Assembly: GCA_012519925.1 (NCBI GenBank)
Contig: JAAYPF010000148.1
Coordinates: forward strand, 1-45,058
Origin: Clostridiaceae bacterium
Lineage (GTDB): Bacteria > Bacillota > Clostridia > Acetivibrionales > Acetivibrionaceae
Direction: 5' to 3'
DNA length: 45,058 nt
The translations under genes were made by a program, and so were the position numbers. Shown here in pieces: positions 36,191 through 40,854 of the stretch. The notes below the pieces were generated by a model, which saw only the letters and a list, made by a program, of their open reading frames with translations, ran no database searches and had not been told where the DNA came from. Position 1 is the stretch's first letter, and every line of letters starts with the position of its first letter.

Positions 36191-38416
36191 TCACTCCAAC
36201 TTTTCAAAATACACCTCGGGTAAAATAATCCTAATCTCATACTCTGAATCTTCCTTCTGCCAATAAACGATAAATCTGATTTTAGCTTTTTTAAGAACAT
36301 AGTTTTTTTGCTTAATATTCTCAATTTTACTCATAAACTGTTTTGAGAATTTTAAAACCACCTGACCTTTTGAATTAAGGCAGCAGTTCTCAAGTGCTAT
36401 AAGCTCATCTCCACTATTGAGTTGTGCAATTAAAGATTGTGTAGATAGAAAAAAGTCCAGCCACACATCCTTGAAACCAAGCTGCATTCCCAATTCTTTC
36501 GGAGGCAAATAAATATTATCATCTCTTATCATCTCTACATTCTCTACGTTCTCTAGATTTGAAGAATTAAAACAACTTCCGTTATAATGAATGGTCAGGT
36601 TTTGTTTCGCCCTTGTCATTGCAACATAGAGAAGTCTTTTAGCTTGATCGGACTGTAACTCAAATTGATTTAAAATTAGATAAACATTGTCAAATTCTCT
36701 GCCCTTAGCTTTGTGAATGGTTGAAACAAATATCGTATCCACCTTTTCCCCATAAAAGTCTTCAAGCTTGGATTCCCGTATAAAGCTCTCAAAATCCGAC
36801 TTGTATTTACTCTTTGAATTAGTTATCTCAAAATCCCTTATGATATTTAGGCATATTTCATAATTTAAGCTGTTCTGAAATTTGTCTTTCAGCTTTCGTT
36901 TTGCGTTTTCCCAAAGTTCATTGTCTATAATGTACTCAGCTTCACTAAAATTAAGCTGGCTTAGGAAAAAACGCACCTCTAAAAGATCAAGAAGATTAAA
37001 ACCTTCATTGGACTGGATAAGTCTTGCCTTTAGACCTTTTTTAATAAGCAATCCAGCTATCTTCAATGCCTCATCATTAGTTCTTGTCAAAATACATGTT
37101 GTTCCGCAAAGATCTTCAGTCAATATGTCTTTGACCAGCGGTGTAATAAGGTTCATGCCTTTGTAGCAAACCAGTTTGATTTTTCCATTGTCTCCCTGCA
37201 TAGCATAAATCGGCTTACTCTTTAAACGACGGGAAATTTTCTTAACAAAATTGTTTGTGAAATCAACTAAGTTTTTATAACTCCTGTAATTTTCAACCAG
37301 CTCGTACTTAACTGCATTTTGATCTTTAATCATATTCTCTAAATATTTTGAACTGGCACCCCTGAATTCATAAATGTTCTGGTCATCATCTCCAACTGCA
37401 ATAACCCGCATATCCTCGTTTTTCTCCATCAAAGTTGAAACCAATTCAAATTCATCAGCGTTCATATCCTGAGCTTCATCTATAACCAAAACAGTCTTTG
37501 TAATTCTACCAATCTCAACTTCACTGTTTCGAATTTTTCCGACCGCCTCTTTTATTATCTCATCCGACTTTTCGATTGTTCCTACTCTTCCTAGCAAATC
37601 AAAACAATAGGAATGAAAAGTTTTTATTTCAATAAAATTAGCAGCATTGCCCACAAGCTTTAGCAGGCGTTTTTTAAACTCAGTTGCAGCCGCTCTAGAG
37701 AAAGTTAGCATGAGCAGCTGATCATGTTTGACATCTTCCATCAGCAACAAGGATGCAAGCTTATGAACTAAAACACGGGTCTTTCCACTCCCTGGACCTG
37801 CTGCCACAACAATATTCTTTGTCTTATTATCTGTAATAATACTTAATTGAGCTGGTGACAACTCCCCAAAAAGTTGCTTAAATTTGGCAGGAGTAATGCT
37901 TCTTTTAATTTCATTCTGGCGGCTTCTCCCAAAGTACTTATTTAGGAAAGTGGAATAATTCAATTGAAAGTAATCGTCTACAAATTTAAGAGCAACTTCA
38001 TAATCACTGGCCATTTTCCTGGCATATTCACCCACAATATGAATTTGCTTCATTTTATTTTCATAAAACTCCTTTAGCTTTTGGTAATCCTCAACCTTAT
38101 AACGTTTTTTATTGTCAAGTTCTATACGCCGTATTTCCATAGGATTATACAGCACCAAAAAACCACCCTCTATATTCAACGCTCCTATTTTTGATAAATA
38201 AAAGAGTGCATTCTCAATATCTTTTACACTGCTTTCAAAATTAAACATTGTGAGTCTTAGATTAAATTCATCCTTCAACTCAAATACCGAAAACTCAACC
38301 ATCACTTCGTCTTTCAGAGCTCCATCTAGTTTAATAATTTCCTCGCTCTTATCATAAAGATACTCTAATATAAACTGTGATAACTCATGTCTTTTTAAGA
38401 GCTTATCTTCAAGCAC
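36191..38416 (-). CDS. UvrD-like superfamily I DNA helicase, C-terminal part of a split RecQ-UvrD protein
   Basis: A DNA helicase module of 741 codons. About 180 residues of winged-helix/helical leader precede the motor. Walker A is AAGPGSGKTRV (Lys212), motif II VIDEAQDMN, motif III GDDDQNIYEFRGA, and motif VI YVAMTRAKQNL. The given GTG start has no usable ribosome site. The same frame is open for a further 41 codons to 38539, where it meets the RecQ gene and contains no ATG, GTG or TTG. The added residues (KGVTPRDIKTIINLWRIKGW) look like a RecQ winged-helix continuation. I infer one ancestral protein of about 1,555 residues. Confidence 0.85.
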   Translation of the reverse strand: MLEDKLLKRHELSQFILEYLYDKSEEIIKLDGALKDEVMVEFSVFELKDEFNLRLTMFNFESSVKDIENALFYLSKIGALNIEGGFLVLYNPMEIRRIELDNKKRYKVEDYQKLKEFYENKMKQIHIVGEYARKMASDYEVALKFVDDYFQLNYSTFLNKYFGRSRQNEIKRSITPAKFKQLFGELSPAQLSIITDNKTKNIVVAAGPGSGKTRVLVHKLASLLLMEDVKHDQLLMLTFSRAAATEFKKRLLKLVGNAANFIEIKTFHSYCFDLLGRVGTIEKSDEIIKEAVGKIRNSEVEIGRITKTVLVIDEAQDMNADEFELVSTLMEKNEDMRVIAVGDDDQNIYEFRGASSKYLENMIKDQNAVKYELVENYRSYKNLVDFTNNFVKKISRRLKSKPIYAMQGDNGKIKLVCYKGMNLITPLVKDILTEDLCGTTCILTRTNDEALKIAGLLIKKGLKARLIQSNEGFNLLDLLEVRFFLSQLNFSEAEYIIDNELWENAKRKLKDKFQNSLNYEICLNIIRDFEITNSKSKYKSDFESFIRESKLEDFYGEKVDTIFVSTIHKAKGREFDNVYLILNQFELQSDQAKRLLYVAMTRAKQNLTIHYNGSCFNSSNLENVENVEMIRDDNIYLPPKELGMQLGFKDVWLDFFLSTQSLIAQLNSGDELIALENCCLNSKGQVVLKFSKQFMSKIENIKQKNYVLKKAKIRFIVYWQKEDSEYEIRIILPEVYFEKLE

Positions 38417-38532
38417 TTCCCTTTCTATAAGAGAAACTACATAGATGTGATCTGTAGAATATACTGTTCTTTGGCTTTTTATCCAACCTTTTATCCTCCA
38501 AAGGTTTATGATAGTTTTAATATCACGCGGTG

Positions 38533-40854
38533 TTACACCTTTGCAGCCAAATCCTTTGTATAGGCTAAAATTTTTTCTTCACGGAGTAGATTTACAATAT
38601 GAATTACTTCTGCTTTTTCAATAGCTAGTCGCTCTGAAATATAATCCAATCTGTCTTCTGCTTCCTCTTGTAAAGCAATTTTTCTACTCTTGCTGGAAAT
38701 AAGGCTCCTTATTATACGAATTGCCTTTTCTTTTTCCTTATCATCAAATTTATCTGAAGAATTAATCTTATATATAGCCTCTGCTGCATTTTTAGCTAGA
38801 ATACCGTCGGCAAAAACTCTTGGCATATTTTGTCCTCGCTTTAAATACCCGGCCTCTTCTAATGCAGCGATAGCTGTTTTTACCCTTGTTTCTATATCAC
38901 CCATATTTTCATCCCATCCAGCTTTTTTTGCAACTTCCAATGCCGATTGGGACACCCGAGCTCTATGCCTTGTAATATCTTTAATAGCTTTCCATACCTG
39001 CTGGATTTCCTCAATATTTATCTTGGTTTGGTTTAACAACATAAAATGCTTGTTCAAATCTTCCTCATTAAACAACACATAGCAGTCGGCAGAGATGTTT
39101 TCATCCCTTCCTGCCCTTCCGGCTTCCTGAACATAGTTTTCAAGAGAATCGGAAATTTCATAGTGAATAACCATGCCCACATCCTTTTTATCCACTCCCA
39201 TCCCAAAAGCAGATGTTGCAACCATTATATCAATTTCACCGTTAATAAACTTATCCTGGTTTTCACTCTTTTCCTGCTTATCCATTTTACTATGGTACGG
39301 CTTTGAAGGATAACCGTCCCTAGTTAAGCGTTCTGCTAACACATAAGCTTTCTTTGTCCGTGAGACATAAATTATGGTGGGGCATTTCTTTTCCTCAAGC
39401 AAATTCCTTAGGGTATTATACTTTTCTTCATCGTTATCTTTTTCAAACACTTTGTAATGAAGGTTGCTTCTAGATGCATTAGAAGTAAAAAGCTCCATGT
39501 CAATAGAAAGCTTTTCTTTAAAATATTGACGAATATCCTCAATAACTTTTTGCTTTGCTGTAGCTGTAAAGCAAGATACGGGTATACTATCCTCAAGATT
39601 CTTTTTCTCCTGTAAGGATTTTACAAAGTCTCCTATATATAAATAATCTACCCTAAAATCTTGCCCCCACGCCGAAAAACAATGTGCCTCATCAATTACA
39701 AACCTAACTACCTTCCTTCCTAACAACAAGCGTTCAATAGTCCTAGAACGTAAAGATTCCGGTGAAATATATAAAATAGATGCAGAGCCGTTTTCAACTC
39801 TTTCAAGGGATTTAGCCCTTTCAATGGGATTTAGCAAACCGTTTACAGTAACCGCATCTGTAATTCCTGATCTTTCTAAATTATCAACCTGATCCTTCAT
39901 TAGGGATTGTAGTGGTGAAATTACAACCGTCAAGCCCTTTAAACTATCTCCACTCATTAATGCAGGTACCTGAAAGGTAATGGACTTTCCCCCTCCTGTT
40001 GGAAATACAGCAAGAAGAGATTTTCCATCAACAGCAGCTTTCACGGCCTTCTCCTGCAATGCTTCACCTGCATATTTCCTGTAGGAATCAAAGCCAAAAA
40101 AACGTTTCAATCCTTTATAAATATCAAGTGCCTCGCTGCAGTATGCACAGCCCTCTAAACAGGGCTTTCCTCTTAGTAAATACATCACATTCTCAACGGC
40201 AGGGAAATTCTTCAGAACCCAGGGTGGAGTAATAGAATATCGGCTCCTTGCATTTATCAAAGCTAGGGAATAAGCCAATTCAATGGGGTAATCGGTTACT
40301 AAATTCTTAAGATTTACCTTCTCACAAATGTGAGCACTAAACTTATGATGGATCGTTTTATATATGTCTATAACATTTTCATTAAAGCCTACAAATTTGA
40401 AGAAAGAACAAACCTCCTTTTTATCTTTTAGCAACTCATAAAAGATTTGCTTTAAAGTATTATCTAAGTTTTTAAATGCGGAAACTTCATCAAAGAAAAG
40501 TTCTCTCGCTTTGATAGAATCATTCAAGGGATTATTGAGTTCTTCCGTTTGAAGTTTATCATCCTTTAGCAAGGCATGGTAAGGTCTAGTAGGGAACAAT
40601 AATGGCGAAAAATATAGGGTATCTATATAATTAAGGTCATCAATAACATCTTTATAAATTGTATTGTGTAAATATTTCAAATCATGATTAAATATGTTGT
40701 GACCACAAGCATATTCCGAACCTTTAATAAATTCCACAAAATCAACTACAGAAGCAGAGTGAAAGGAAGCACCATTTCCCTTAATAGCCCCTATATCAAG
40801 TACTTTTTCCCTATTTGGATCAATTTCGGTATCAAAAAAGACAATAGAATTCAT
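38533..40854 (-). CDS. exonuclease-RecQ DNA helicase, N-terminal part of a split RecQ-UvrD protein
   Basis: A 773-residue DNA repair helicase. Residues 1-170 carry a DnaQ-like 3'-5' exonuclease pattern: FFDTEID (Asp7, Glu9), GHNIFNHDLKYLH and HHKF. A Cys cluster CLEGCAYC lies near 228. The helicase core has FPTGGGKSITFQVPAL (Lys290), VIDEAHCFSAWGQDFR, SRTKKAY and HYEISDSLENYVQEAGRAGRD. The tail (about 610-773) is a RecQ C-terminal region. It stops with KDLAAKV. Re-reading one A at 38541-38543 joins it in frame to the UvrD-like gene. GGGGG lies 7 bases before the ATG. No other repair genes adjoin. Confidence 0.88.
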   Translation of the reverse strand: MNSIVFFDTEIDPNREKVLDIGAIKGNGASFHSASVVDFVEFIKGSEYACGHNIFNHDLKYLHNTIYKDVIDDLNYIDTLYFSPLLFPTRPYHALLKDDKLQTEELNNPLNDSIKARELFFDEVSAFKNLDNTLKQIFYELLKDKKEVCSFFKFVGFNENVIDIYKTIHHKFSAHICEKVNLKNLVTDYPIELAYSLALINARSRYSITPPWVLKNFPAVENVMYLLRGKPCLEGCAYCSEALDIYKGLKRFFGFDSYRKYAGEALQEKAVKAAVDGKSLLAVFPTGGGKSITFQVPALMSGDSLKGLTVVISPLQSLMKDQVDNLERSGITDAVTVNGLLNPIERAKSLERVENGSASILYISPESLRSRTIERLLLGRKVVRFVIDEAHCFSAWGQDFRVDYLYIGDFVKSLQEKKNLEDSIPVSCFTATAKQKVIEDIRQYFKEKLSIDMELFTSNASRSNLHYKVFEKDNDEEKYNTLRNLLEEKKCPTIIYVSRTKKAYVLAERLTRDGYPSKPYHSKMDKQEKSENQDKFINGEIDIMVATSAFGMGVDKKDVGMVIHYEISDSLENYVQEAGRAGRDENISADCYVLFNEEDLNKHFMLLNQTKINIEEIQQVWKAIKDITRHRARVSQSALEVAKKAGWDENMGDIETRVKTAIAALEEAGYLKRGQNMPRVFADGILAKNAAEAIYKINSSDKFDDKEKEKAIRIIRSLISSKSRKIALQEEAEDRLDYISERLAIEKAEVIHIVNLLREEKILAYTKDLAAKV

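What the first reader, a model, noticed from the sequence alone, without database searches (positions are those of the whole stretch)
38410..38560. RecQ and UvrD-like helicases are one split open reading frame
RecQ ends at TAA 38533-38535, but the -1 frame is open without any start codon for 41 codons into the UvrD-like gene. The site GCA-AAG-GTG (minus strand, A_AAG at 38541-38544) allows -1 slippage on lysine, as in the A_AAG sites of some insertion sequences. The joined protein, exonuclease-RecQ-UvrD of about 1,555 residues, would combine three DNA-processing activities.
Basis: partly seen in the sequence, partly recalled or inferred. Interest (0 to 1): 0.65.

Follow-up and report, generated by a model that had tools for sequence, protein, structure and literature searches.

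The report
Deletion-broken helicase fusion, not programmed frameshift
Two neighbouring genes that look like halves of one protein are the remains of a single large DNA-processing enzyme gene that lost about 151 bases, probably between two short repeats, so the frame change looks like a deletion scar and not a built-in ribosome slip.

Summary
The two abutting frames are real. RecQ (38533-40854, minus) ends at TAA 38533-38535; the UvrD-type helicase goes on in the -1 frame with no ATG/GTG/TTG until GTG 38416. Relatives confirm one ancestral gene: a single ORF of about 1,600 codons in the same genus (80%/72% identity), in the order, and in other phyla.

The cause is not a one-base slip. The 15 related loci read here carry 138-156 nt at this point that the window lacks; spacing implies a loss of 151 nt (1 mod 3). 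The break lies on 10 nt (TTTGGCTGCA, 38551-38542) that read DLAA upstream and FGC downstream, each fitting close relatives on its own side, as expected if two short direct repeats recombined. The A_AAG "slippery site" belongs to that scar. The downstream RNA folds no better than shuffles.

No sampled relative had two intact neighbouring genes; several were broken by other lesions. Most likely this is a recent natural deletion that breaks the fusion. A wrong assembly join is the main rival and needs reads to exclude. Slippage could rejoin the frames but the product would still lack about 50 linker residues. Programmed frameshifting is not supported.

The parts
38533..40854 (-). exonuclease-RecQ part of the broken fusion gene, 773 codons plus stop TAA 38533-38535
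40120..40854 (-). N-terminal DEDD-exonuclease-like domain (residues 1-245)
   Evidence: no Pfam match
38998..40110 (-). RecQ-type helicase core (about residues 249-619)
38542..38551 (-). deletion scar: TTTGGCTGCA, 10 nt that fit both sides; about 151 nt present in relatives are missing here
38539..38542 (-). A_AAG letters proposed as a slippery site; part of the scar's right side
36191..38542 (-). UvrD-type part of the fusion gene in the -1 frame (frame open from 38578; first start codon GTG 38416)
36581..37858 (-). UvrD-type helicase core (residues 229-654 of the UvrD part)

Best explanation
The window holds a broken copy of a single gene for a fused exonuclease-RecQ-(winged-helix linker)-UvrD protein of about 1,600 residues. 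About 151 nt were lost from the linker, probably by misalignment or annealing between two copies of a 10-nt direct repeat (TTTGGCTGCA) in the parent gene. Because 151 is not a multiple of three, RecQ now runs into a stop codon and UvrD continues in another frame without a start codon at its head. SHOWN: the fused gene in relatives, the missing segment, and the fit of both reading frames on the same 10 nt. INFERRED: that the parent had both repeat copies, that the loss happened in the organism, and that it is recent and abolishes the fusion protein. A 773-residue exonuclease-RecQ protein is the most likely product.
For: Order sample: 15 of 58 genomes have the gene, own included; of 15 loci in the 14 others, 14 have a readable junction and all 14 run through it in one frame, one (G041) ends at a contig edge. 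Phylum sample: 15 of 398 genomes, own included; of 15 loci in the 14 others, 11 run through, 2 are broken in or just after the segment by other lesions (G441b, G194), 2 cannot be read across it (G382, G462). The gap in 15 related loci (14 of the order, plus G097) is 138-156 nt; spacing gives 151 nt in G002, G043, G038, G018 and 145 in G006. The scar codes FGC in the UvrD frame; [FY]GC stands there in 5 of 15 relatives, G002 included, and occurs in shifted frames of nine relatives only 8 times in 28,946 codons. The missing segment was not found elsewhere in the own genome (one weak match, E 0.17). Neither half has a further stop or frame break; dN 0.12 and 0.175 against near-saturated dS. Other members are broken by unrelated lesions.
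Against: No second strain or reads were available; the deletion rests on one draft assembly of 253 contigs. The window departs from only 5 of 235 and 1 of 140 near-invariant columns, so it shows little decay, which an assembly error would also give. Against that, it has more private amino-acid changes than G002 in both halves (23 v 6, 27 v 6; no difference between halves, Fisher p 1.0), and its dN excess over G002 towards three outgroups is larger in UvrD (0.057-0.079) than in RecQ (0.023-0.028). The parent repeat is inferred, not seen.
Confidence: 0.7

Rival explanations
1. The organism's gene is intact and the assembler joined two places wrongly at the 10-nt overlap, dropping 151 nt.
For: Draft genome of 253 contigs; both halves clean of further stops or frame breaks and nearly all conserved columns kept.
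Against: A 10-nt overlap is short for an assembler (general knowledge). The missing segment was not found on any other contig of this genome. Broken copies also occur in other genomes, one of them a single-contig assembly (G402).
Confidence: 0.23
2. The split is real and kept: exonuclease-RecQ of 773 residues and a UvrD-type protein restarted at GTG 38416 work as separate proteins.
For: Both halves look constrained; two other broken copies (G441b, G194) also leave an intact exonuclease-RecQ half.
Against: No sampled relative shows two intact genes side by side. The GTG lies 42 codons inside the conserved frame. About 50 residues of the linker are gone.
Confidence: 0.05
3. Programmed -1 ribosomal frameshifting on A_AAG makes the joined protein of about 1,555 residues.
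For: A_AAG just before a zero-frame stop with the -1 frame open.
Against: The frame change is absent from all 25 order and phylum loci that run through the site; RNA fold z -0.66; the product would lack about 50 residues, placed by the model in two winged-helix units.
Confidence: 0.02

Closest known systems
Fused 'RecQ family ATP-dependent DNA helicase' of about 1,600 aa (product name on plasmid records NZ_OY725908.1 and NZ_CP043858.1)
   Same: Same order of domains over the whole length in those records (tblastn with the G002 protein, 99-100% covered); the window is 80% (RecQ half) and 72% (UvrD half) identical to G002
   Different: The window lacks about 151 nt of the linker and is out of frame from there on
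A_AAG -1 frameshift sites of insertion sequences
   Same: The four letters A_AAG before a zero-frame stop
   Different: No conserved frame change or site in relatives, no stimulator found; the frames differ because of a deletion
WRN (named 'Bifunctional 3'-5' exonuclease/ATP-dependent helicase' in PDB records)
   Same: Exonuclease and RecQ-type core in one chain
   Different: The match found is to the helicase core only; that WRN has no UvrD-type helicase is recalled

Membership tests
Fused exonuclease-RecQ-UvrD helicase | RecQ-type and UvrD-type cores homologous to one continuous protein | tested here: met
Fused exonuclease-RecQ-UvrD helicase | DEDD exonuclease-like N-terminal domain | tested here: met
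   same conserved domain as relatives, with invariant D8, E10, D58, D112; the exonuclease identity itself rests on the model and Foldseek at E 1.5e-3, with no Pfam match and only E 1.4 to a PolC-type chain
Fused exonuclease-RecQ-UvrD helicase | Single open reading frame through the linker | tested here: not met
   scar 38542-38551 and stop 38533-38535: the window copy is a broken member
Programmed -1 frameshift gene | Frame change and slippery site conserved in relatives | tested here: not met
   25 of 25 order and phylum loci that run through the site do so in one frame
Programmed -1 frameshift gene | Stimulatory stem-loop downstream | tested here: not met
   z -0.66, 55 of 200 shuffles fold at least as well
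Programmed -1 frameshift gene | Joined product made in the cell | not testable with these tools
   needs a reporter or proteomics

The most novel reading that the evidence does not exclude
The fused exonuclease-RecQ-winged-helix-UvrD protein is an undescribed, horizontally moving antiviral or anti-plasmid effector found near defence genes. It is gained and lost often, and the window shows one of several independent inactivations, some of which leave a possibly working exonuclease-RecQ half behind.
Probability: 0.2. Interest if true: 0.5.

Novelty: new member of a known kind. Interest (0 to 1): 0.18.

Why it matters
It removes a false case of programmed frameshifting: comparison with relatives shows that an attractive slippery site can be the scar of a deletion between short repeats. 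It also points to a widespread, patchy and often broken protein of about 1,600 residues that joins a DEDD-type exonuclease, a RecQ and a UvrD helicase. I saw no description of it in the listings of three searches of the open-access library (15 of 48 papers, 12 of 27, 10 of 76), which misses most subscription journals. Its role is worth testing.

Tried and rejected
A one-base indel or slip at the A run was rejected when tblastn left 138-156 nt between the two matches in the 15 related loci read.

Programmed frameshifting was tested by conservation of the site and RNA folding and rejected. The promoter and terminator scan gave three promoter-like sites (1.5 expected) and no terminator, not informative.

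The missing segment elsewhere in the genome was sought and not found.

Decay of the UvrD half, which would prove an old real deletion, was tested. Conserved columns show none; dN towards outgroups hints at faster change in UvrD; private changes do not differ between halves. This leaves recent deletion and assembly error both open.

Foldseek of the linker model gave no match at E 0.001; single winged-helix proteins appear with probability up to 0.99.

No phage record matched at E 1e-100; three plasmid records matched at E 1e-150.

The order and phylum samples were searched with the RecQ half and the named genomes with the fusion, so lone UvrD halves would not have been seen.

Full report
WHAT IS THERE. 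On the minus strand a RecQ-type ORF of 773 codons (40854-38533) ends in GCA AAG GTG TAA. The UvrD-type ORF continues in the -1 frame, which is open from 38578, has its first ATG, GTG or TTG at 38416, and stops at 36191. Pfam and NCBIfam find a RecQ-type DEAD and Helicase_C pair in the first half and UvrD N- and C-terminal domains in the second.

ONE GENE IN RELATIVES. The window is a whole contig of a draft genome of 3.91 Mb in 253 contigs. In the same genus (G002) the pair is one open frame of 1,615 codons, 80% and 72% identical to the two halves; the other genome of the genus (G001) had no match at E 1e-60. In the order sample 15 of 58 genomes, own included, have the gene. Of the 15 loci in the 14 others, one (G041) ends at a contig edge before the junction and 14 run through it in one frame. 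In the phylum sample 15 of 398 genomes, own included, have it. Of 15 loci in the 14 others, 11 run through; G441b has a one-base frame break at residue 796/797 and G194 a large deletion from about 798 to 1430; G382 ends with its contig at residue 782 and G462's match ends at 669. In 80 of 80 named loci of several phyla the two motifs lie in one ORF; these are the best of 579, so the count favours intact copies, and at least two (L109, L095) repeat G013 and G215. No locus examined had two intact neighbouring genes, but lone UvrD halves would have been missed.

THE JUNCTION IS A DELETION. Between the end of the RecQ match and the start of the UvrD match, 15 related loci (14 of the order, plus G097) carry 138-156 nt that the window lacks. 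The spacing gives 151 nt in G002, G043, G038 and G018 and 145 in G006, each 1 modulo 3 (others not computed). The window reads AAG GAT TTG GCT GCA on the left, like KDLxA in relatives, and TTT GGC TGC AAA GGT GTA ACA CCG on the right, like FGCKDVTP in G002. Ten bases, TTTGGCTGCA (38551-38542), serve both. At this place [FY]GC stands in 5 of 15 relatives (G002, G006, G013, G018, G050) and GC in 9 of 15; the lysine after it in 4 of 15. [FY]GC appears in shifted frames of nine relatives 8 times in 28,946 codons, and in the shifted frames of the window's RecQ gene only at this place, so the double fit is unlikely by chance. The simplest reading is a deletion between two 10-nt direct repeats, a familiar type of mutation in bacteria (recalled; of papers I saw only listings and starts of abstracts). 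The AAA of A_AAG is then an ordinary codon of the downstream frame.

FRAMESHIFTING. The frame change is absent from the 25 order and phylum loci that run through. The 106 nt from the site fold no better than shuffles (z -0.66). The shifted product would still lack about 50 residues. A model of the linker from A. straminisolvens (L109, mean pLDDT 78.5, pTM 0.49) has a row of helix-and-strand units that I read as winged helices; Foldseek's matches to single winged-helix proteins agree, though none reaches E 0.001. The lost residues, about 173-222 of the model, hold the end of one wing strand, a long helix, and the first strand and helix of the next unit.

REAL OR ARTEFACT. Neither half has another stop or frame break. 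dN against G002 is 0.12 and 0.175 with near-saturated synonymous change. The window departs from 5 of 235 near-invariant columns in RecQ and 1 of 140 in UvrD; 15 of the 87 relatives tested the same way depart from 0-4 and 0-5, so the RecQ figure is the highest of 16. Results that point the other way: the window has more private changes than G002 in both halves (23 v 6, 27 v 6; Fisher p 1.0 between halves), and its dN excess over G002 towards three outgroups is larger in UvrD (0.057-0.079) than in RecQ (0.023-0.028). The missing piece was not found elsewhere in the genome. This fits a recent real deletion and also an assembly join; only reads can decide. I lean to a real deletion because lesions are common in this family: G215 and G402 carry stop codons, G462 is truncated, and L109 (= G013), L110, L119, L124 and the second G032 copy carry frame breaks; G402 is a single-contig genome. 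Drafts and metagenome assemblies among these may hold errors of their own.

THE FAMILY. The N-terminal 240 residues of the window have no Pfam match at E 5 and one weak sequence match to a PolC-type chain (E 1.4). D8, E10, D58 and D112 are invariant in 68 sequences. A confident model (pLDDT 89, pTM 0.86) has as best structural matches a family B DNA polymerase and S. aureus DinG (E 1.5e-3 and 1.6e-3, probability 1.00), none at E 0.001. I take it as a DEDD-type exonuclease with moderate confidence. The gene is patchy, and a Bacteroidia copy (L053) is 71% identical to the G002 protein over residues 4-1599, which suggests horizontal transfer; no tree was made. Among 116 neighbours of 20 loci (of 30 in the order and phylum samples; nearest three ORFs of 100-1,199 aa each side), 65 PADLOC families match at E 1e-20, against 9 families among 115 proteins of 20 control stretches from 15 of the same 19 genomes. 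One protein can match many families and helicases cross-match, so the number of defence genes is not known. An earlier scan of 102 neighbours of 26 named loci gave 90 families at E 1e-10 without a control. The window's own neighbours are a chemotaxis receptor and a carbohydrate-binding protein, not defence genes. This is suggestive only.

VERDICT. The frameshift mechanism is not supported: the window holds a deletion-broken copy, or a mis-joined assembly, of a database-named but, in my searches, undescribed fusion helicase.

Noticed in passing
window:38542-38551; L153 (G441b); L151 (G194): Three different lesions (the window's deletion, a one-base loss in G441b, a large deletion in G194) fall in the same stretch of about 50 residues and leave the exonuclease-RecQ half intact. 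Rough post hoc p 0.006 with the window, 0.048 without, from hand-entered positions of 12 lesions.
   Followed up: partly
L185-L204 v L165-L184: Neighbours of the fused helicase match more PADLOC families than control stretches (65 v 9 at E 1e-20), among them PsyrT and PsyrA, OloA and OloB; whether these stand as pairs at one locus was not checked.
   Followed up: partly
L053-L132: Copies of the fused helicase in Bacteroidota, Deltaproteobacteria and Clostridia; L053 (Bacteroidia) is 71% identical to the G002 protein over nearly its whole length, suggesting horizontal transfer.
   Followed up: no
window:32083-35952: A 1,289-residue protein with four family 6 carbohydrate-binding modules and a von Willebrand A domain.
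   Followed up: no
window:24876-30242: Two neighbouring genes each with a LacI-like sugar-binding domain and a histidine-kinase ATPase domain.
   Followed up: no
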